From positions 1 to 64,000 of the forward strand of contig JBBPIG010000032.1 in the NCBI GenBank assembly GCA_038040445.1: a stretch of 64,000 nucleotides of DNA. Direction: 5' to 3'. The DNA is from Acidobacteriota bacterium. Lineage in GTDB: Bacteria > Acidobacteriota > Blastocatellia > UBA7656. The notes beneath the pieces were generated by a model, which had not been told where the DNA came from, searched no databases, and saw only the letters and a list, made by a program, of their open reading frames with translations. Position numbers and translations under genes: made by a program. The first letter of the stretch is position 1. Every line of letters begins with the position of its first letter. Shown here piece after piece: positions 26,177 to 51,751 of this stretch.

Positions 26177-27112
26177 TCACACCTTCTTGCGGGATGACTG
26201 CCACGGACCGCCCGGCTTCCAGATCGCTTCGAGCTCCTTGTTCTCCGCAGCAGCGGCCAGCACCGGCGCCAGGAACTCTCGCAGTCTTGGAATCACAACA
26301 TCGAGTGTGTCCGTCTCGCGTGAAAGGCGACCCTTGCGCACAAACGCTTTCCATTGCGCCTGACGTCCTGGTTGATCTATGAACTCTTCGCTCAGAGCTA
26401 TAGGCGTCTCTTTGGGAATCTCAGTACGCCGCCGGCGAAATGTCTCTTTGACGGCGCGGGTAAGCACAGTGCCATCGAACTCAAACATGAGAGCCAATTC
26501 ACGGATGTCGAAGAAATCCTTGATGCGGCTGTTGATCGCACCAAGGCTCAGCATCGCTTCCAGTTTCTCAGCCACGACAGTCTCGCGGGAATATGTCAGG
26601 ATCTCCGGCGCCGGGAAAGCCAGCAGTGTAGGATAGACATGAATCGCGGGTGCAGGTGTTACCACATCGCCAAATCCGATGTCCACCTGAACCGGAATCC
26701 GAGCGCGTGCCAGGCGCGCAATCATTTTGAGGCGAACGCCCTGATACTCCTCGGCAGCTCGAATCTCTTCACCTCGAATCGAAGCTGGATCGAAGATCAG
26801 ACCATCGTCCTCGACCGGCGTCTCGCAAATCTCGCGGAAGGTCTGGCCAAGCTTCTCAACCGAGTCCTCTCCCTTGCTGAGCAAGTCCAAATCCCACGTT
26901 GCTCGATGAGGATGGGCTGCCCAAAGGTTGAAAAGCTTTGCTCCCTTCAGCACGAACCGCTCACTGTGCTTTGAACGACTGATGCGGTAGAGCAATCTCT
27001 CGATCGCGTACTCGCTCAGAATGAATTGAAACTCTTCCCCCCGCTGCTGAGAGAGATTTACCAGCCTTTGCCTGACTGACGCAGCGAGGTTCTTTGGTTT
27101 GGCGGGACTCAT
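26177..27112 (-). CDS. abiEii: AbiEii/AbiGii nucleotidyltransferase toxin
   Basis: A 311-residue toxin of the type IV AbiE system. The nucleotidyltransferase core is visible: VLKGAKLFNLWAAHPHRATWDLDLLSKG (glycine motif and DxD), IPVQVDIGFGDVV (third acidic motif) and EKLEAMLSLGAINSRIKDFFDIREL, the conserved AbiEii Lys/Asp block. Family members transfer nucleotides to targets such as tRNA and cause abortive phage infection or dormancy. Its start overlaps the antitoxin stop by 4 bases (ATGA type). Confidence 0.93.
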   Translation of the reverse strand: MSPAKPKNLAASVRQRLVNLSQQRGEEFQFILSEYAIERLLYRISRSKHSERFVLKGAKLFNLWAAHPHRATWDLDLLSKGEDSVEKLGQTFREICETPVEDDGLIFDPASIRGEEIRAAEEYQGVRLKMIARLARARIPVQVDIGFGDVVTPAPAIHVYPTLLAFPAPEILTYSRETVVAEKLEAMLSLGAINSRIKDFFDIRELALMFEFDGTVLTRAVKETFRRRRTEIPKETPIALSEEFIDQPGRQAQWKAFVRKGRLSRETDTLDVVIPRLREFLAPVLAAAAENKELEAIWKPGGPWQSSRKKV

Positions 27113-27720
27113 CCGAGAGACTCCAGATATGGCTGCATCACTCGCGTCACGCGGGCAAGCTTCGCGTAGCGCAACAGTTCATCCATGCCTGAGCGATATT
27201 TCCGCCGGTAGTCGCGCAGTGCTTCCAGCGCTACATCGGTGCCTATCTTGTTTCGGAACTTGAAACAGTCGGCGACGCTCTTGGCTGCGCTGTAGACGCG
27301 CACATTGATACCTTCGATGCGATGAGCCTCGATCCCACTGCTGAATGCTTTGCCCGACAGATGGATGATTCGCAGCGGTGGATAGGACACGGCGGGTCGC
27401 CGGGCTTTTTGGTCAATCGCAATCCAGACTTCAAACGGGTTCTGGGTCGTGAGCCCGTGGAACCGAAGCGCCGACAGAAGACAGATAACGCCGTGCGGAA
27501 CGCGTTTGCCGGCCTGCGCGAGGTTGTGTTTCTCTCCCAGGTCCGCGTCTGCAAGGGCGTAGAGTCCGCGACCTATGCGCTGAAGCTGTCCGGCGTCTAC
27601 GAGGCGCTTCAGATACACACGCGGGATTCCGTGACTCTCAAGCTCGTGGGACCGAAGGACGCCCGCCTTGCGAACCAGGTCGAGGAGTTTCTTTGTTTGA
27701 GGCTGCGCGCTCATGTTCAA
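27109..27720 (-). CDS. abiEi: AbiEi-family antitoxin/transcriptional regulator
   Basis: A 203-residue protein. The N-terminal winged helix (KKLLDLVRKAGVLRSHELESHGIPRVYLKRLVDAGQLQRIGRGLY) is the AbiEi_4 domain, and the rest is the AbiEi C-terminal antitoxin domain (HGVICLLSALRFHGLTTQ, EGINVRVYSAAKSVADCFKFR). It represses its own promoter and counteracts AbiEii without direct binding in characterised systems. It is first in a two-gene operon with a 4-base overlap. Confidence 0.93.
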   Translation of the reverse strand: MNMSAQPQTKKLLDLVRKAGVLRSHELESHGIPRVYLKRLVDAGQLQRIGRGLYALADADLGEKHNLAQAGKRVPHGVICLLSALRFHGLTTQNPFEVWIAIDQKARRPAVSYPPLRIIHLSGKAFSSGIEAHRIEGINVRVYSAAKSVADCFKFRNKIGTDVALEALRDYRRKYRSGMDELLRYAKLARVTRVMQPYLESLG

Positions 27721-27862
27721 GTTACGAATCGTCGGTAGTTGTTAATAAGTACCGACGTTTTGTAACACCAGGCGGGCACTGCTTGCAAGGCGCGTGGGGA
27801 ATTGGCGAATCGACGGTAAGTGGCTGCTTTGTGATGATAAAGAGCCCAGCCCAACGCATAAG

Positions 27863-28162
27863 CTAACCGGAGCGGCGTTTTTTGTCGCGCGCGGTTGAGC
27901 GTGTAGTTAACCGCGAGACCGCCGGTAGCTCCTCTCGGATTATCTGGCGCAACACCGTCTCCGTCACCGGAGGCTCACTCTTTTCCAAGTAGGCCTTGAG
28001 CGCCTTATTCATCATTGTTTGATAACCGGTGCCCGCTTGCTCCGCACGGGCGCGGAACTCGTCGAGCACCGCGTTATCGATATAAATAGTTATGCGCGTC
28101 TTGCCCGTCTGGGCGATTAGCGGTCCTCGCTTGCCCTTCGAAAAGTCGTATTCAGCCTTCAT
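27863..28162 (-). CDS. brnA: BrnA-type antitoxin (ribbon-helix-helix)
   Basis: A 99-residue antitoxin. The sequence KTRITIYIDNAVLDEFRARAEQAGTGYQTMMNKALKAYLEK is the RHS/RHH DNA-binding fold typical of BrnA. The basic C-terminal tail (TRSTARDKKRRSG) is longer than usual. Its start overlaps the end of brnT by 11 bases on the same strand, and the order toxin-then-antitoxin is normal for this system. It should neutralise BrnT and repress the operon. Confidence 0.88.
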   Translation of the reverse strand: MKAEYDFSKGKRGPLIAQTGKTRITIYIDNAVLDEFRARAEQAGTGYQTMMNKALKAYLEKSEPPVTETVLRQIIREELPAVSRLTTRSTARDKKRRSG

Positions 28163-28415
28163 ATTCTGTCACCTCGTGTGGCGTTGCGTGGCGAGCCGAG
28201 ATAAGCCGGATCTCCTCACCACGAAACGCATAAACGACTAAGACTTGTCCCGCGCTACCCGTACCGACCGCGACGAAGCGCTCTTCGTCCTGGGAATCGT
28301 GATCAAGGAGATGTATCGCAAGCGGATCATAGAAGAGACCTTCCGCGTCGGCGAACGAAACCCTGTGCTTCTTCAAATTGCTTGCGGCTTTTGCAGGGTC
28401 GAACTGGAAGCGCAC
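28152..28415 (-). CDS. brnT: BrnT-family ribonuclease toxin
   Basis: An 87-residue RelE-fold toxin. The BrnT pattern is clear: FDPAKAASNLKKHRVSFADAEGLF at the start, DEERFVAVGTGSAGQVLVVYAFRGEEIRLISARHATPHE at the end, with the usual Arg, Ser and Arg residues of the active region. The start is GTG at 28415. A promoter 7-12 bases upstream implies a leaderless or nearly leaderless message. It forms a type II system with the brnA gene it overlaps. Confidence 0.92.
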   Translation of the reverse strand: MRFQFDPAKAASNLKKHRVSFADAEGLFYDPLAIHLLDHDSQDEERFVAVGTGSAGQVLVVYAFRGEEIRLISARHATPHEVTEYEG

Positions 28416-28421
28416 AATCCA

Positions 28422-28450
28422 ACTGTATGCACGTTATGCATACCCGTCAA
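28422..28450 (-). promoter_or_regulatory. brnTA promoter with palindromic operator
   Basis: On the minus strand TTGACG (28450-28445) and TACAGT (28427-28422) are 17 bases apart. Between and over them lies the inverted repeat GTATGCA-5-TGCATAC (28425-28443 on the plus strand). The layout fits repression by the BrnTA complex. The predicted start of transcription falls at about the GTG start codon of brnT. Confidence 0.5.
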
Positions 28451-28843
28451 GTAACTCCGTTGCCTACGTGCCTAACTTGGATAACGATTCTCCAACTATG
28501 ATCCGGGCTGGGGATCGAGGGATAGAGCTTGCGACCACCAATGCCCCCCACTTCCGGAGATTGTATGCAACGATAGGCTCTCGTAAATACCTCAACGGAA
28601 GTCGGTGGATCTGACCAAAGTCTACTTGAAACCTTTTTCCCGTCCCCGCCACTCACCGTTGTGCCCTGAGTCTGTTCAGCGTCCACGACGCGCGGCTCAT
28701 CTCGTCTGCACCCGGCTCGATTCCGGGAACGTTATCCCATCGAAGGCTGTATATCTTGGCAACGCGACAGAGCAAATCATCGGGTCCTCAACACCGGATC
28801 ATTGGAATGCTTTGCCCCTAACAAACTCGGAGGAAAGAGAAAG
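28451..28843. other. Intergenic stretch at the right edge of the island
   Basis: About 390 bases with no supported gene. A hairpin CCCGG-CTCGATT-CCGGG around 28712 imitates a tRNA T-arm, but no tRNA body surrounds it. The last bases hold CGGAGGAAAG, the ribosome site of the ATPase gene. Confidence 0.4.
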
Positions 28844-45431: not shown

Positions 45432-45549
45432 CCCTCCTTTCACTAGCGTCGTCGAAGTCGTCTTGCTGTCGATTCCCGTCTTAGATAGAATCCAGCCAAT
45501 CTCGTAGCTTTCACCGGTGGAGCCCAATATTTCAGGAGGGACTACAGCC

Positions 45550-47652
45550 ATGTACGCCAATCGACTATCGCGGATTCTGGTGTTATTTCTTGCTTTCACG
45601 ACCGCGGTGGCGGCACAGCAACCCGCGAAGCGCCCGCTCAAACTCGACGACATCCCACGAGTTCGCGAAGTGCGCGATCCGCAGATCTCGCCCGATGGAA
45701 AATGGGTGGCTTATGTCGTCTCGGCCATCGACGTGAAGGAAGACAAGAGCAACGCGCATATCTGGATGGCCGGCTTCGACGGCAAGTCCGATCGCCAAAT
45801 CACCTGGAGCATGGATAGCGAATCGTCGCCGCGGTGGAGCCCTGATGGGAAATACCTGTCGTTCACCTCGTCGAGGCCTGGCAAGACCAAGGGTAACCAG
45901 GTGTGGCTGCTCGATCGCAGCGGCGGTGACGCCATGCAGCTCACCGAATTGAAAGGACGATTGCAGGGCTACGAATGGTCGCCCGATTCGAAGCGATTGG
46001 CGTTGGTTGTCGGCGACCCCGATCCTGAGGCTGACGCGAATACTCCTCCAACTCCGGAGGCCGGCGCGACCGGCGCGCAAGGCGCCGCCGCAAGGCCAAA
46101 AGCGCCTAAGCCGATCGTTATCGATCGCTACAAGTTCAAGCAGGACGGGCAAGGCTACCTTCTCTCGGGACGCCACAGCTACATCTATCTGTTCGACATC
46201 GAGAGTAAAAAGCTGGACCGGCTGGGAACCGGCAAGTGGGACGAGGCTGTCCCTTCGTGGTCAACGGACGGCAGCCGCATAGCCTACATGAGCAATCACG
46301 CGGAAGACCCGGACCGCGAGCCGTCAGCCCAGATTTTCGTTGCCGACGCAAAGCCCGGTTCCGCTGAAAAGCAGTTGACCCAGGCAACCAGCCGAGGCGG
46401 CCGTTCGCGTCTGGAATGGAGCGCCGACGGCAAATGGATCGCGTTCCTTGAAGGTGATGAGAAGAAGTACAGCGCCTACGGCATGAGCCATCTGACGATT
46501 GTCGCCTCCGACGGGAGCGGCGCGCCCACTCGCATGAAGGCTGTTGAAGCGCTCGACCGCGGGGTCTCCTCGCCTAGCTTCAGCGCCGATGGCAAGACCA
46601 TTCGCTTTCTGGTCACCGACGATCGCTCCGTCTATCCGGCGCAGGTTAACCTTGCCGCCGGCGCCGTCGAGCGATTGATGCCGCCGCCCATCGTGATGTC
46701 GAGTTGGGACTCGGCGGCTGGACGCTCGATCGTTCTCTCGGGCGGCAACACAAAGCACACAGAAGTCTATGCCGTGGAAGGCGGCGCTCTGCGGCAGATC
46801 ACCCATCACAACGACGCGTTGTTTTCGGAGCTCGATATCGCATCCACCGAAGAGGTCAATTTCCGGAGCAAGGACGGCACTGAAGTGCATGGCTTGCTGA
46901 CCTACCCGGTCGGTTATGTGAAAGGCGCCAGGGTCCCGTTGTTGCTGCGGATCCACGGCGGTCCGAACGGCCAGGATCAGCACTCGTTCAGCTTCGAGCG
47001 GCAGTTCTTCGCGGCGAACGGCTACGCTGTGCTGGCGGTGAACTATAGAGGCAGCTCCGGCCGCGGTATGAAATACTCGCGCTCGATCTTCGCTGACTGG
47101 GGACACTACGAAGTCGAGGATTTGCAGGCCGGGGTGGATCACGTGATCAAGATGGGCGTTGGGGACCCGGATCGGTTGGGAATCGGCGGCTGGAGCTATG
47201 GCGGAATCTTGACCGACTACATGATTGCCAGCGATACGCGCTTCAAGGCGGCGACCAGCGGGGCGGGCACGGCATTCACGGTCGCGTTCTACGGGACGGA
47301 TCAATACATTCTTCAATACGACTACGAGATCGGTCCGCCGTGGGACCCGAAAGCGTGGGAGACTTACCAGAAGATCTCCTATCCGTTCCTGCACGCCTAT
47401 CGCATCAAGACGCCGACGTTGTTTCTCGGCGGCGAGCGCGATTTCAACGTGCCGATCCAGGGAGGCCAGCAGATGTATCAGGCGCTCAGGAGCCTGGGCG
47501 TCGATACACAGATGATTATCTATCCGAACGAGAATCACGGCATCCAGCGGCCGAGCTACCAGCGCGATCGGTATGAGCGATACCTTGCGTGGTACGACAA
47601 GTATTTGAAGAAGGCTCCGGAGGCGACAACGGCCGCTCCGGGTGTACGGTAG
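45550..47652 (+). CDS. Exported S9 (prolyl oligopeptidase-type) peptidase
   Basis: About 700 residues from ATG 45550; GGAGGGA lies about 9 bases upstream. A signal peptide (IVLFLAFTTAVAAQQP-like, starting MYANRLSRILVL) is followed by a WD40-like propeller (repeated SPDGKWVAYV, SPDGKYLSF, WSADGKWIAF units) and an alpha/beta hydrolase domain. The catalytic triad is Ser549 (GGWSYGGI), Asp631 (GERDFNVP) and His663 (NENHGI). It cleaves dipeptides or acyl-peptides from oligopeptides in the periplasm. The last ~90 bp of the gene are duplicated further on at 48074-48160. Confidence 0.95.
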   Translation: MYANRLSRILVLFLAFTTAVAAQQPAKRPLKLDDIPRVREVRDPQISPDGKWVAYVVSAIDVKEDKSNAHIWMAGFDGKSDRQITWSMDSESSPRWSPDGKYLSFTSSRPGKTKGNQVWLLDRSGGDAMQLTELKGRLQGYEWSPDSKRLALVVGDPDPEADANTPPTPEAGATGAQGAAARPKAPKPIVIDRYKFKQDGQGYLLSGRHSYIYLFDIESKKLDRLGTGKWDEAVPSWSTDGSRIAYMSNHAEDPDREPSAQIFVADAKPGSAEKQLTQATSRGGRSRLEWSADGKWIAFLEGDEKKYSAYGMSHLTIVASDGSGAPTRMKAVEALDRGVSSPSFSADGKTIRFLVTDDRSVYPAQVNLAAGAVERLMPPPIVMSSWDSAAGRSIVLSGGNTKHTEVYAVEGGALRQITHHNDALFSELDIASTEEVNFRSKDGTEVHGLLTYPVGYVKGARVPLLLRIHGGPNGQDQHSFSFERQFFAANGYAVLAVNYRGSSGRGMKYSRSIFADWGHYEVEDLQAGVDHVIKMGVGDPDRLGIGGWSYGGILTDYMIASDTRFKAATSGAGTAFTVAFYGTDQYILQYDYEIGPPWDPKAWETYQKISYPFLHAYRIKTPTLFLGGERDFNVPIQGGQQMYQALRSLGVDTQMIIYPNENHGIQRPSYQRDRYERYLAWYDKYLKKAPEATTAAPGVR

Positions 47653-47657
47653 CGGTG

Positions 47658-47738
47658 TCTTAACACGGTCCAGCGTCTCGCTCAGTTGATCAACTAGGGG
47701 AACAAGTCGGGCGGCGAGACAATGCAAACACGTTGTGT
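47658..47738 (+). other. Degenerate attC-like site candidate
   Basis: TCTTAAC (47658-47664) is followed after 10 bases by GTCTCGC, a loop with the palindrome AGTTGATCAACT, then GCGAGAC, and 11 bases later GTT (47732). The L-type stem is perfect. The last box GTTGTGT does not fit GTTRRRY and no extrahelical base is seen. It precedes the DUF2442 ORF as a cassette boundary would. Confidence 0.35.
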
Positions 47739-47761
47739 TAGTAGGAGAGTTCGATAGAGAC

Positions 47762-48052
47762 ATGTCTATGCCTAGAGTCTTTGAGTCGAGTAGCTATCAG
47801 GTATCTGAAGTTCGCGCTGTCAAAGTTTGGTTTGATGACGATAATATTTGGCTCGGCCTCGAGGACGGACGTCAAGTGTCGACGCCGTTAGCCTTTTACC
47901 CACGGCTTCTGAATGCGACCAAAGAACAGCGAGAGAACTACGAATTCATCGGTCCTGGCATTGGCATTCATTGGGAAGACCTGGACGAAGATCTGAGTGT
48001 CGAAGGGATTGTTCTGGGCAGAAAAGATCGGACGTCAAATTGGACGAATTAG
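47762..48052 (+). CDS. DUF2442-domain protein
   Basis: About 96 residues from ATG 47762 (AGGAG about 15 bases upstream; an earlier TTG at 47735 is also possible). The DUF2442 pattern is clear: VSEVRAVKVWFDDDNIWLGLEDGRQVSTPLAFYPRLLNATKEQRENYEFIGPGIGIHWEDLDEDLSVEGI. DUF2442 proteins often accompany DUF4160 proteins as suspected toxin-antitoxin partners, but no DUF4160 gene is here. It sits between attC-like sites like an integron cassette. Confidence 0.85.
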   Translation: MSMPRVFESSSYQVSEVRAVKVWFDDDNIWLGLEDGRQVSTPLAFYPRLLNATKEQRENYEFIGPGIGIHWEDLDEDLSVEGIVLGRKDRTSNWTN

Positions 48053-48073
48053 ACTTGCTTGGAGGTCAGACAA

Positions 48074-48160
48074 TGGCGTCCAGCGGAATAGCCTACCAGC
48101 GCGATCGGTATGAGCGGTACTTGCGTGGTACGGCAAGTCCACGAAGTCTGCAAGAGGCAG
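48074..48160 (+). repeat. Second copy of the S9 peptidase gene tail
   Basis: TACCAGCGCGATCGGTATGA (48094 on) repeats 47557 on, and the similarity runs with small gaps from about 48074 to 48160 against 47537-47625. It reads AYQRDRYERYL then drifts out of frame, so it is a non-functional duplicate placed after the DUF2442 gene. Confidence 0.8.
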
Positions 48161-48229
48161 CAGGCAGACGCAGACTTGTTGTCAAACGGCAAACCAATGG
48201 GACGAATGGCACACCGCGTCCAATGAAAG

Positions 48230-48287
48230 CGCTAACCCTTCGGTCCAGCGGACCGCCTTCGGCGGCCGCTAAACTCAAGCGTTAAGC
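48230..48287 (+). other. Integron attC recombination site
   Basis: CGCTAAC (48230-48236), a 10-base spacer, AGCGGACCGCC (48247-48257), a TTC loop, GGCGGCCGCT (48261-48270), a 10-base spacer ending CTCAAGC, and GTTAAGC (48281-48287, fits GTTRRRY). The inner stem pairs perfectly except for one extra A at 48252, the extrahelical base that marks the recombining strand in attC sites. The closing part, ACTCAAGCGTTA, matches a common attC 3' end. Confidence 0.72.
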
Positions 48288-48316
48288 ACAAGCGCGCCCT
48301 CTGGAGAAAACCCTAT

Positions 48317-48856
48317 ATGAAAGTTCAAAGCATGTCTCCGGGACAATTTCTTGTCACCGAACATCGGAACATCGCTGCGACCGCACTGGCTCAACGAACT
48401 ATTGATCGGATCGAGATGCCGGTTCGCGCACCAGATGCAGCTCAGTCCGCAACACAGGTTGCCACCTTTCTGCAAAGCAGCACTGTACAACAGGCACTCT
48501 CGGAATTACAGCGCCTAAATAAACCGATTGGTAGCCTACAACTTGATTTGTCTTTGAAGGCGCCCTTAATCGCGGATGCCGCTAGCGCTGGAGTCGACCT
48601 TTCCCCTTTGTTTGAGGCACTGAGCACCAAGAGGGAAGTGAAGGCTAAAGGCGACAGTCCACCTCGAACGGTTTTGCAGGGCGTTCTCCTTGGCGGCGCC
48701 GTGTCGTGCATTTTGAATGCTGTAAAGCCAAGCGGCAATCCTGTTTTGCTTACTTTGGGCCTTATGGTGGCCGGTGGAGTCTTATGGACTCACGTTAACA
48801 GCTTTGAGATCGGCCTGAATAAAGATGGCAGTGTGAGCGGTAAAATCGGCTTGTGA
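48317..48856 (+). CDS. Unknown cassette-borne protein
   Basis: A 179-residue protein starting 30 bases after the attC site, the usual distance for an integron cassette gene. No family recognised. It has a polar N-terminal half and two hydrophobic stretches near the end (VLLGGAVSCILNAV and LLTLGLMVAGGVLW, about 118-150), which may be a membrane hairpin, followed by a Gly/Lys-rich end. No clear ribosome site; the AAGTTCAAAG region gives no start information. Confidence 0.6.
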   Translation: MKVQSMSPGQFLVTEHRNIAATALAQRTIDRIEMPVRAPDAAQSATQVATFLQSSTVQQALSELQRLNKPIGSLQLDLSLKAPLIADAASAGVDLSPLFEALSTKREVKAKGDSPPRTVLQGVLLGGAVSCILNAVKPSGNPVLLTLGLMVAGGVLWTHVNSFEIGLNKDGSVSGKIGL

Positions 48857-48862
48857 TCAGTG

Positions 48863-48917
48863 GTCTAAGCATGCGCTGGAGTGAACCGTCGAGGCTATCA
48901 CGCCCGCCGTGTTGGGC
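48863..48917 (+). other. Possible degenerate attC downstream of the cassette ORF
   Basis: GTTGGGC (48911-48917) fits GTTRRRY, and GTCTAAG lies at 48863. Between them GGAGTGA and TCACGCC can pair with one mismatch, but the spacers are unequal (8 and 6 bases) and the first box ends AAG. It starts 7 bases after the ORF stop. Weak support. Confidence 0.25.
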
Positions 48918-49090
48918 CGTCGGCGTCGGCACTAGTTGCTCGTAACAGTCGCTTTCCTAGTAGCGAGGCGCCTCGGAGGCCCTTGATGCCACAAGTCGCT
49001 CGCCTCCCACAGCAACGTCACTGATACAGGCCACCAGGACGAAGCTAATAGCCAAAGGTGAGGTAGTGCAGTGCTCGTGAAAATTTCTTT

Positions 49091-49945
49091 TCACGCAAGC
49101 TCACTCGATTTGAGCCCGGACTTGAAAGCAATTGCCAGAAGGACCAACACGGCCGCTGTGAGAATCAACGACAGCGCTGACCCAAACGGCTGATTGAGTT
49201 GCGCGAATTGATTCTGAATCAGGTTGCCGATCATCACCGACTTCGCGCCGCCTAACAGATCAGGCGTGATGAACGCGCCGAGCGACGGTATGAATACAAG
49301 CACGATCCCCGCAATCAAACCGGGACGTGAGAGCGGCAGAGTGATCTTAAAGAAGGTCCAGAACCGATTCGCTCCCAGGTCCTGCGCAGCTTCCAACAGC
49401 CGGACGTCCAATCGATCCAGCGCAACATAGATCGGCAAGATCATAAAAGGCAACTCGCCGTAGACCTGTCCGACCAGTACGGCAAAATCCGAGTATAGTA
49501 ATTTAAGCGGCGCATCGATAAGACCCGTGTTCATCAGCGCGGAGTTGATCACCCCTTCGCTTCTGAGCAACAACATCCAAGCGTAAGTCCGAATCAAGAA
49601 GCTGGTCCAAAACGGAATGACCGTCAGCACCAACAACGTGCGCTTCCATCGCTCCGGCGCGCGCAACGCGAGATAGTACGCGACCGGATAACTCACAACG
49701 GCGCACAGCAGAGTTGTTGTCGTTGTGATCCAAATCGTCCTCCAGTAAGCGCGCAGGTACAGCGGGTCCAATGCCCGAAGGAAGTTCGAAGGCGTGAACT
49801 CGTAGATCGTCTTCCCGTACGCGCCGCGAGTCGCGAGGCTGACAATCAAGACGATCGCCAGCGGCGCCACTATGGCAAGCCCGAGCCACAGAACCGCGGG
49901 TGCAAGCAGCAAATTGGCGCGTGTGTTTCTTCTCATTTCGATCAC
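49091..49945 (-). CDS. ABC transporter permease, spermidine/putrescine type (PotB-like)
   Basis: A 284-residue permease with six hydrophobic helices. The binding-protein-dependent signature is AAQDLGANRFWTFFKITLPLSRPGL (EAA loop, contact site for the ATPase). The opening LAPAVLWLGLAIVAPLAIVLIVS and ILPIYVALDRLD region match PotB. It moves polyamines or a related solute inward with PotA. The usual PotC and PotD genes are not next to it, so this would be a split system. Confidence 0.88.
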   Translation of the reverse strand: MIEMRRNTRANLLLAPAVLWLGLAIVAPLAIVLIVSLATRGAYGKTIYEFTPSNFLRALDPLYLRAYWRTIWITTTTTLLCAVVSYPVAYYLALRAPERWKRTLLVLTVIPFWTSFLIRTYAWMLLLRSEGVINSALMNTGLIDAPLKLLYSDFAVLVGQVYGELPFMILPIYVALDRLDVRLLEAAQDLGANRFWTFFKITLPLSRPGLIAGIVLVFIPSLGAFITPDLLGGAKSVMIGNLIQNQFAQLNQPFGSALSLILTAAVLVLLAIAFKSGLKSSELA

Positions 49946-50002
49946 CGGCTCGCAGGGACTAACACTCAGTTTGATGGATCGCAGATCGAGACTTCAGCCG
50001 CC

Positions 50003-50175
50003 AATCCCGTAGGGATGTCCTGTCTGTAGAAGCGCCGTGCGTGAGGGTTCTTGACTCCGTCAGGAGTCACCTCGTCCCGCAGAAACGCGGCTTGCCGGAG
50101 GACAGGTAACTCCTAACGGAGTTACAGAACCATGACGCACTGACCTTCTATGGACAGGTGATCCCTACGGGATCG
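50003..50175. repeat. Nested palindromic element
   Basis: The outer arms 50003-50032 and 50145-50175 are imperfect inverted copies (CCCGTAGGGAT...CTGTAGAAG). Inside lies a second pair of dyads, GACTCCGTCAGGAGTC (50053 on) and GTAACTCCTAACGGAGTTAC (50106-50125). No gene is present. It lies between the PotB-like gene and the glycosyltransferase. Confidence 0.7.
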
Positions 50176-50215
50176 GCAGCCCGACGTTCTCGTTCCGCGA
50201 TCTATTGACTGAGCG

Positions 50216-51751
50216 CTAGTGCCGCTTCCACACAGGAACCATCATAGCTCTCTGACCCGCGGCCTCCGATTCAATCATCTCGCCGGCGTCGTATCCGCGT
50301 TCCCTAAGCGCACTCGGGATGAGCGGCTCGGTCTCGTGCTCGTACGTGACAACCGCCACCCAGTAATGATCGGCCTCGATCCCGCTCAAGCTGTCAGCGA
50401 ACGATATCTGGAATCTCGTTTCGCTCGCCTGATCGAGATAGAACTGGATCGTATTGCCTATGTTTGAATCCGTGACATAAACCTCGACCGGCCCTTGCCC
50501 CGGTTCGGCCTGAATCATACTTAGAACCAACGGCTCCCACGCGATCTGACGCCGGGCGGTCATCTCCGTAAATCCGCTGAGAGCTGACCAGCAAACCATC
50601 AGGCCGACGGCGCCTATCCGAACCGGACGCGTGTTCAGACTGTAGGCCGCTGCTGCAACTATCAACAAATATGCCGGCGCAGCGATGATTAGATAGCGAA
50701 ACGCCCACACCGATTGAGGCAGCAGATGGCTCGCAACGAAAGCCAGAGCGACCGGCGCGAAGGCAAATAGCGCGAGCCACCAAAAGGCCATCGCGTAAGG
50801 CTTGTTCTCACGCCCGCGGCGGAGACGCCAGCCCCACACAGCCACCGGCGCAAGGAACGCAAGCATCACCAGCGCCGTCCCAAAAACCTTCCAGCGATAG
50901 CTCAACGGGCCATTGAGGTTGCCGTAGTAGCCGACAAGCTCTGACGCCGGCGGCGGCCGGTTCCAGACGAAGTTCACCCGGCTGGGATTGACCCGCGCGG
51001 CCTTCGCGACAAACCAGACCCAGGGCGAAAAGCAAAGGGCGAGAAAAGCGGCGGCAAATGCGAATAAGCGCAGTCGCTCGCGTTTCCAGATCGACAAGAA
51101 CATCAGCTCCAGCGCTATGATGACCCAACCGTAGTAATGGGTGAATACCATTAGCAAGTTCACGGCGCACAGCATCGTTTGAGTCTTCCTGCTGCCCGCA
51201 TCTTGATTTATGAGCTTTGCGAAGAGCCACAGCGATGTCAGTGTCAGTAAAAACAGGAGACTGTACATTCTGAGTTCTTGAGCGTGGGTGATCAGAAGTC
51301 CGTTGATCGCCATGAGCCACAACGCGAGATTCATAGCTGCCGGCTCCAGCCTGAGATCGCGACACAGAGCGAAGAACGGAATCACCGAAGCGATTGACAA
51401 TAGCGCAGGCAGCAGCTTCAACCATAAGAGTGACTGGCCGCCGACTCCGATCCAAACTTTCAGCAGCATGTAAAACAGCGGCGGGTGTACGACGTCTCCT
51501 ACAACAGATTCGAGCAAGCTTCTCCAATCCTGAGCCGCCGTCCACAGCGTAAAGACTTCATCGCCGAACAGACCATAAGAGGTAAGGCGCCAGAACCTGG
51601 CCGCGACAAATATCGCCGCGATAACCGTGAATAGAGAAAGCGAGAGCTTTCCAGGATGCCGCTCATCGCGCTTTTCCAGGCAGAGCCGCGAGCCGCGGGA
51701 TTCCACGATTTGCGACGTTGTGGCCGATGTGCTGTGGGTGGAAACGCTCAC
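50216..51751 (-). CDS. GT39-like membrane glycosyltransferase
   Basis: A 511-residue integral-membrane enzyme with about ten hydrophobic segments. The first loop has RLTSYGLFGDEVFTLWTA, where Asp-Glu is the catalytic motif of the GT-C (PMT/ArnT) clan. GDVVHPPLFYMLLKVWI follows, a conserved PMT_2 region. The outer C-terminal part is soluble. It probably transfers sugar from a lipid-linked donor to protein or glycolipid outside the membrane. It is located between two halves of a polyamine ABC transporter and is unlikely to belong to it. Confidence 0.82.
   Translation of the reverse strand: MSVSTHSTSATTSQIVESRGSRLCLEKRDERHPGKLSLSLFTVIAAIFVAARFWRLTSYGLFGDEVFTLWTAAQDWRSLLESVVGDVVHPPLFYMLLKVWIGVGGQSLLWLKLLPALLSIASVIPFFALCRDLRLEPAAMNLALWLMAINGLLITHAQELRMYSLLFLLTLTSLWLFAKLINQDAGSRKTQTMLCAVNLLMVFTHYYGWVIIALELMFLSIWKRERLRLFAFAAAFLALCFSPWVWFVAKAARVNPSRVNFVWNRPPPASELVGYYGNLNGPLSYRWKVFGTALVMLAFLAPVAVWGWRLRRGRENKPYAMAFWWLALFAFAPVALAFVASHLLPQSVWAFRYLIIAAPAYLLIVAAAAYSLNTRPVRIGAVGLMVCWSALSGFTEMTARRQIAWEPLVLSMIQAEPGQGPVEVYVTDSNIGNTIQFYLDQASETRFQISFADSLSGIEADHYWVAVVTYEHETEPLIPSALRERGYDAGEMIESEAAGQRAMMVPVWKRH

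What the first reader, a model, noticed from the sequence alone, without database searches (positions are those of the whole stretch)
48230..48287. A well-formed integron attC site with no integrase in view
Symmetric 10-base spacers, an inner stem with a single extrahelical A, and a GTTAAGC closing box. The next ORF starts 30 bases later, as in a cassette. It suggests a cassette cluster without an integrase (CALIN-type), or a single stray cassette, in an acidobacterium-like genome.
Basis: partly seen in the sequence, partly recalled or inferred. Interest (0 to 1): 0.78.

Follow-up and report, generated by a model that had tools for sequence, protein, structure and literature searches.

The report
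Lone integron cassette site, integron elsewhere
This is a genuine integron recombination site (attC) sitting on its own in an Acidobacteriota chromosome, and the same genome carries a complete integron with its integrase and dozens of such sites elsewhere, so it is a well-made example of a known kind of stray gene cassette.

Summary
Window 48230-48287 (+) is a real attC: a covariance model built only from plasmid and proteobacterial attCs scores it 57.7 bits, E 5.5e-12 in the window and 5.8e-10 genome-wide. It is 87% identical over 53 bp to the attC of the aacA34 resistance cassette. The genome (G000, 72 contigs) has an intact integron integrase on contig C28 (459 bits against TIGR02249, 51% identical to IntI1), followed by about 14 attCs. 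The model finds 32 attCs in all, on a dozen contigs. The window site is isolated: the nearest other attC is 20 kb away (27849-27912, minus strand), behind a BrnT/BrnA toxin-antitoxin pair. So it is a 'single attC lacking integrase' (SALIN), not a CALIN as IntegronFinder 2 counts them. Most likely one cassette was inserted off-target by the resident integrase; a relic of a rearranged array is the main rival. Integrons are common in this class (integrase in 34 of 98 genomes, attC in 17 of 23) and already known in Acidobacteriota. New member of a known kind; low interest.

The parts
48230..48287 (+). attC site, 58 bp (R'' 48230-48236, R' 48281-48287, crossover expected between G48281 and T48282)
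   Evidence: CM R1 57.7 bits, E 5.5e-12; 86.8% identity over 53 bp to the aacA34 cassette attC; bottom-strand fold z -3.5
47762..48052 (+). DUF2442 gene, probable cargo of the cassette ending at this attC (inferred)
   Evidence: PF10387, 75.6 bits; GC3 0.51 against 0.71-0.75 in the flanking genes
47737..47743 (+). candidate left boundary of that cassette (GTTAGTA); weak
   Evidence: matches 5 of 7 of GTTRRRY, but pairs 6 of 7 with R'', against 4 of 7 for the present R'
48317..48856 (+). 179-aa ORF of unknown family, 30 bp behind the attC; possibly a second cassette whose own attC is lost
   Evidence: no match over cut-off in Pfam or NCBIfam; found in 1 of 396 genomes of the phylum, its own; GC3 0.51
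48075..48138 (+). frameshifted partial copy of the tail of the S9 peptidase gene (47539-47602)
   Evidence: 88% identity over 64 bp; origin unexplained
27849..27912 (-). second isolated attC in the window, 3' end of a BrnT/BrnA cassette
   Evidence: CM R1 26.7 bits, E 3e-4
27863..28415 (-). BrnT toxin (28415-28152) and BrnA antitoxin (28162-27863) genes, cargo of the second lone cassette
   Evidence: PF04365 88.8 bits, PF14384 42.4 bits
28470..28476 (-). candidate left boundary of the BrnTA cassette, GTTAGGC
   Evidence: 7 of 7 match to GTTRRRY

Best explanation
48230-48287 is the attC of a single integron gene cassette that lies away from the genome's integron (a SALIN). Shown: it is an attC by sequence, structure and model score; an intact integrase gene and a large attC array exist elsewhere in the genome; the DNA around it (about 47640-49074) has no counterpart in the relatives compared and its ORFs have a different codon composition from their neighbours. 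Inferred: the integrase IntI, made from the C28 gene, recombined the folded bottom strand of a circular cassette with a G/TT-type site in the chromosome (a non-attI, attG-like target) downstream of an S9 peptidase gene. That leaves one complete attC at the 3' end of the cassette, with an R' half (TTAAGC) borrowed from the target or from a next cassette. The cassette would be about 47738-48281 and carry the DUF2442 gene. The second lone attC, at 27849-27912, arose in the same way with a BrnTA cassette.
For: CM score and genome-wide E-value. Intact IntI with the tyrosine-recombinase residues R156, K181, H287, R290, H313 and Y322 invariant among ten IntI proteins. About 14 attCs downstream of it on C28 and clusters on C16, C33, C52 and other contigs. 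Two isolated attCs in one 64 kb window, both well inside a 65.7 kb contig, so not an assembly break. Relatives' DNA matches stop near 47640 on the peptidase side and start near 49074 on the permease side. GC3 falls to about 0.51 in both island ORFs. The BrnTA lone cassette has a perfect GTTAGGC left boundary, and a BrnT gene also sits between two attCs of the C28 array. Off-target insertion by an IntI elsewhere in the genome is one of three proposed origins for such sites (PMC8618304).
Against: No empty target site was found in a relative: the two flanking genes are not shown to be neighbours in any of them. The left boundary proposed for the first cassette matches only 5 of 7 positions. A damaged copy of the peptidase tail lies inside the proposed cassette, which a clean cassette insertion would not give. 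The other 12 DUF2442 genes of this genome have no attC hit nearby, so the cargo assignment is weak.
Confidence: 0.5

Rival explanations
1. Relic of a former longer cassette array: the region held several cassettes (DUF2442 gene, 179-aa ORF and others), and deletions or rearrangement left one recognisable attC.
For: Two ORFs of deviating composition on either side of one attC; the flanking genes are not shown to be neighbours in relatives, so this is a likely synteny break; a truncated peptidase tail shows that deletion or duplication happened here.
Against: No second attC, even degenerate, within 46500-50500 with filters off; the hairpin at 47655-47746 folds little better than shuffles (z -1.0); the remaining attC itself is well preserved.
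Confidence: 0.33
2. The attC came in with a larger piece of foreign DNA (transposon, phage or plasmid fragment carrying a cassette), without the resident integrase acting here.
For: Its closest attCs are mostly in betaproteobacteria and on plasmids (Glaciimonas 81%, Polaromonas and aacA34 79%).
Against: An attC of the same genome on C16 is as close (79%). I identified no transposase or phage gene among the neighbouring ORFs I examined; the unshared stretch is only about 1.4 kb.
Confidence: 0.13
3. A chance palindrome or terminator-like hairpin, not an attC.
For: It is GC-rich with a TTC-capped hairpin; only 4 of 7 R''/R' positions pair.
Against: 57.7 bits, E 5.8e-10 for the whole genome; primary-sequence identity to resistance-cassette attCs; conserved extrahelical base and box spacing.
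Confidence: 0.02

Closest known systems
SALIN (single attC lacking an integron-integrase), as described for Shewanella (PMC9229058)
   Same: One attC beside an ORF, scattered in the genome away from the integron; reported in genomes with and without intI
   Different: Different phylum; the cassette's left end here is not firmly defined
CALIN (cluster of attC sites lacking integron-integrase, IntegronFinder; PMC9024848)
   Same: attC without an adjacent integrase
   Different: Only one attC; IntegronFinder 2 asks for at least two by default. Clusters of attCs away from intI exist elsewhere in this genome (C16, C33), though contig breaks may have cut some of them from the C28 array
attC of the aacA34 cassette in a class 1 integron (NZ_CP015139.1)
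   Same: Same hairpin core AGCGGACCGCCTTCGGCGGCCGCT, same length, same extrahelical A
   Different: R'' is CGCTAAC instead of TTCTAAC and R' is GTTAAGC instead of GTTAGAT; no resistance gene and no class 1 integrase here
Sedentary chromosomal integrons of Acidobacteria (an Acidobacteria-specific attC model exists, PMC8352920)
   Same: Phylum; chromosomal array of attCs next to intI
   Different: The window site lies outside the array and is a short attC resembling betaproteobacterial ones, unlike the longer attCs that dominate the C28 array

Membership tests
attC recombination site | R'' (RYYYAAC) and R' (GTTRRRY) boxes | tested here: met
   R' GTTAAGC 7/7; R'' CGCTAAC 5/7, AAC kept
attC recombination site | imperfect hairpin L''/L' with an extrahelical base, folded on the bottom strand | tested here: met
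   folds; extrahelical A on the top strand at 48252
attC recombination site | significant covariance-model score | tested here: met
   57.7 bits, E 5.5e-12 with an independent model; IntegronFinder's own model was not available
attC recombination site | recombined by an integron integrase | not testable with these tools
   needs a recombination assay
CALIN | at least two attC sites clustered | tested here: not met
   no other attC in 46500-50500 with filters off; the next one is 20 kb away
SALIN | single attC with no integrase beside it | tested here: met
   no TIGR02249 match on contig C32
Complete integron (genome, contig C28) | intI gene adjacent to an attC array | tested here: met
   C28:3329-4351 over the TIGR02249 cut-off; attCs from 5087 to about 27900
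Complete integron (genome, contig C28) | attI site | not tested
   not sought

The most novel reading that the evidence does not exclude
In this acidobacterial lineage the resident integrase routinely inserts single cassettes, among them toxin-antitoxin cassettes, at scattered chromosomal G/TT sites outside its own array, so that the integron feeds genes into the general chromosome.
Probability: 0.35. Interest if true: 0.4.

Novelty: new member of a known kind. Interest (0 to 1): 0.22.

Why it matters
It shows that a lone attC picked out by eye in a raw sequence was real, and that the genome around it carries a substantial integron. Lone cassettes together with a resident integron in an environmental phylum are natural material for testing whether integrases spread cassettes outside their arrays. 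The phenomenon itself is already described.

Tried and rejected
Rfam gave nothing at gathering thresholds, so a model was built here. The hairpin at 47655-47746 was considered as an upstream attC and rejected. A degenerate attC behind the 179-aa ORF was sought and not found. The empty-site test in relatives was inconclusive: the S9 peptidase and the permease were found on different contigs. The 179-aa ORF has no relatives in plasmids or in 396 genomes of the phylum. A genome-wide search with the site's own DNA found no second copy. The paper on attG sites (Nat Microbiol 2024) is not held; it is cited through PMC11023631 and PMC12901181.

Full report
The site. Reading 48230-48287 directly confirms every anatomical detail of the finding: R'' CGCTAAC, two 10-base spacers, a ten-pair stem interrupted by one extrahelical A at 48252, a TTC loop, R' GTTAAGC, and an ORF 30 bases further on. 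The one weak point is that only four of the seven R''/R' positions pair.

Test against an independent model. The site's DNA hits cassette attCs on plasmids, best the aacA34 cassette of a class 1 integron with 86.8% identity over 53 bp, E 3e-8. A covariance model was built from 28 attCs of plasmids and proteobacterial chromosomal integrons, none from Acidobacteria. It scores the site 57.7 bits, E 5.5e-12 in the window and 5.8e-10 in the 6.75 Mb genome. The bottom strand folds at -18.8 kcal/mol against a mean of -10.6 for its shuffles; in a matched pair of folds it is also more stable than the top strand. Three related genomes without a detected integrase (G007-G009) gave no hit at E<=0.01. The E-values are rough because calibration was shortened, but the margin is many orders of magnitude.

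The integrase. The genome holds one protein over the TIGR02249 cut-off, on C28:3329-4351, 458.9 bits. It is 51% identical to IntI1 without a gap, keeps the tyrosine-recombinase residues shared by ten aligned IntI proteins, and has relatives up to 66% identical in the same family. Downstream, on the same strand, attCs follow from 5087 to about 27900. So intI and the cassettes point the same way here, unlike class 1 integrons but like Treponema (PMC3607928). With further sites on C16, C33, C52, C13, C25, C37, C61, C1, C11, C18 and C32, the model alone finds 32 distinct sites in the pieces searched (one of its 33 rows is the reverse-strand echo of another). Several lie close to contig ends, so some separate 'clusters' may be pieces of the C28 array.

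Isolation. In the window there are two attCs, 20 kb apart and on opposite strands. Around the first, a search of 4 kb with filters off found nothing else. IntegronFinder 2 reports CALINs from two attCs up (PMC9024848); single ones were named SALINs in Shewanella (PMC9229058). So the fitting term is SALIN.

Surroundings. Upstream lie an S9 peptidase gene (45517-47652) and a DUF2442 gene (47762-48052). Downstream lie the 179-aa ORF, known from no other genome searched, and an ABC-transporter permease (49945-49091). In relatives the DNA match ends near 47640 on one side and begins near 49074 on the other. GC3 is about 0.51 in the two island ORFs against 0.75 and 0.71 in the flanking genes. Both points suggest that the 1.4 kb was acquired. 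A frameshifted 64-bp copy of the peptidase tail at 48075-48138 shows a further rearrangement that I cannot explain.

The second site. 27849-27912 (minus strand), 26.7 bits, follows a BrnT/BrnA toxin-antitoxin pair. A perfect GTTAGGC box at 28476-28470 would make a cassette of about 620 bp. On its own this site does not fold better than shuffles (z +0.5), so it rests on the model score, the boxes and the cargo. The C28 array contains a BrnT gene between two attCs, only 35% identical and with one internal stop, so BrnT genes do occur as cassettes in this genome.

Mechanism. Shown: a true attC, an intact integrase gene in the same genome, and DNA around the site that relatives lack. Inferred: insertion of one cassette by the resident IntI into a chromosomal G/TT site. 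This is one of three published origins for cassettes outside integrons (PMC8618304), and attG targets are described in work cited by PMC11023631 and PMC12901181. I put it at about 0.5, a relic of a rearranged array at about 0.33, and arrival within other foreign DNA at about 0.13.

Context and novelty. In the same class 34 of 98 genomes have an integrase match at E<=1e-60, and 17 of 23 have at least one attC hit. Acidobacteriota are listed among integron-bearing phyla (PMC8618304), and an Acidobacteria attC model exists (PMC8352920). The genome itself is unnamed here; that it belongs to Acidobacteriota rests on its same-family relative G002 appearing to be the Acidobacteria MAG contig L085 (same match coordinates 922-1863 as L027), not on a tree.

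Noticed in passing
window 27849-28476 (-): A second lone attC behind a BrnT/BrnA toxin-antitoxin pair with a perfect left boundary box: a probable single-cassette insertion.
   Followed up: partly
window 26177-27720 (-): AbiEi/AbiEii type IV toxin-antitoxin genes directly beside the BrnTA cassette.
   Followed up: no
window 47539-47602 and 48075-48138: 64-bp direct repeat: a frameshifted copy of the S9 peptidase tail lies between the DUF2442 gene and the attC.
   Followed up: partly
L018 3329-4351 and downstream (G000:C28): Integron integrase transcribed in the same direction as its cassettes, the reverse of the class 1 layout.
   Followed up: partly
G017:C2:635415-651796: In a two-contig genome of the same class with no integrase match at E<=1e-60, seven attC hits lie within 16 kb: a likely true CALIN.
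   Followed up: no
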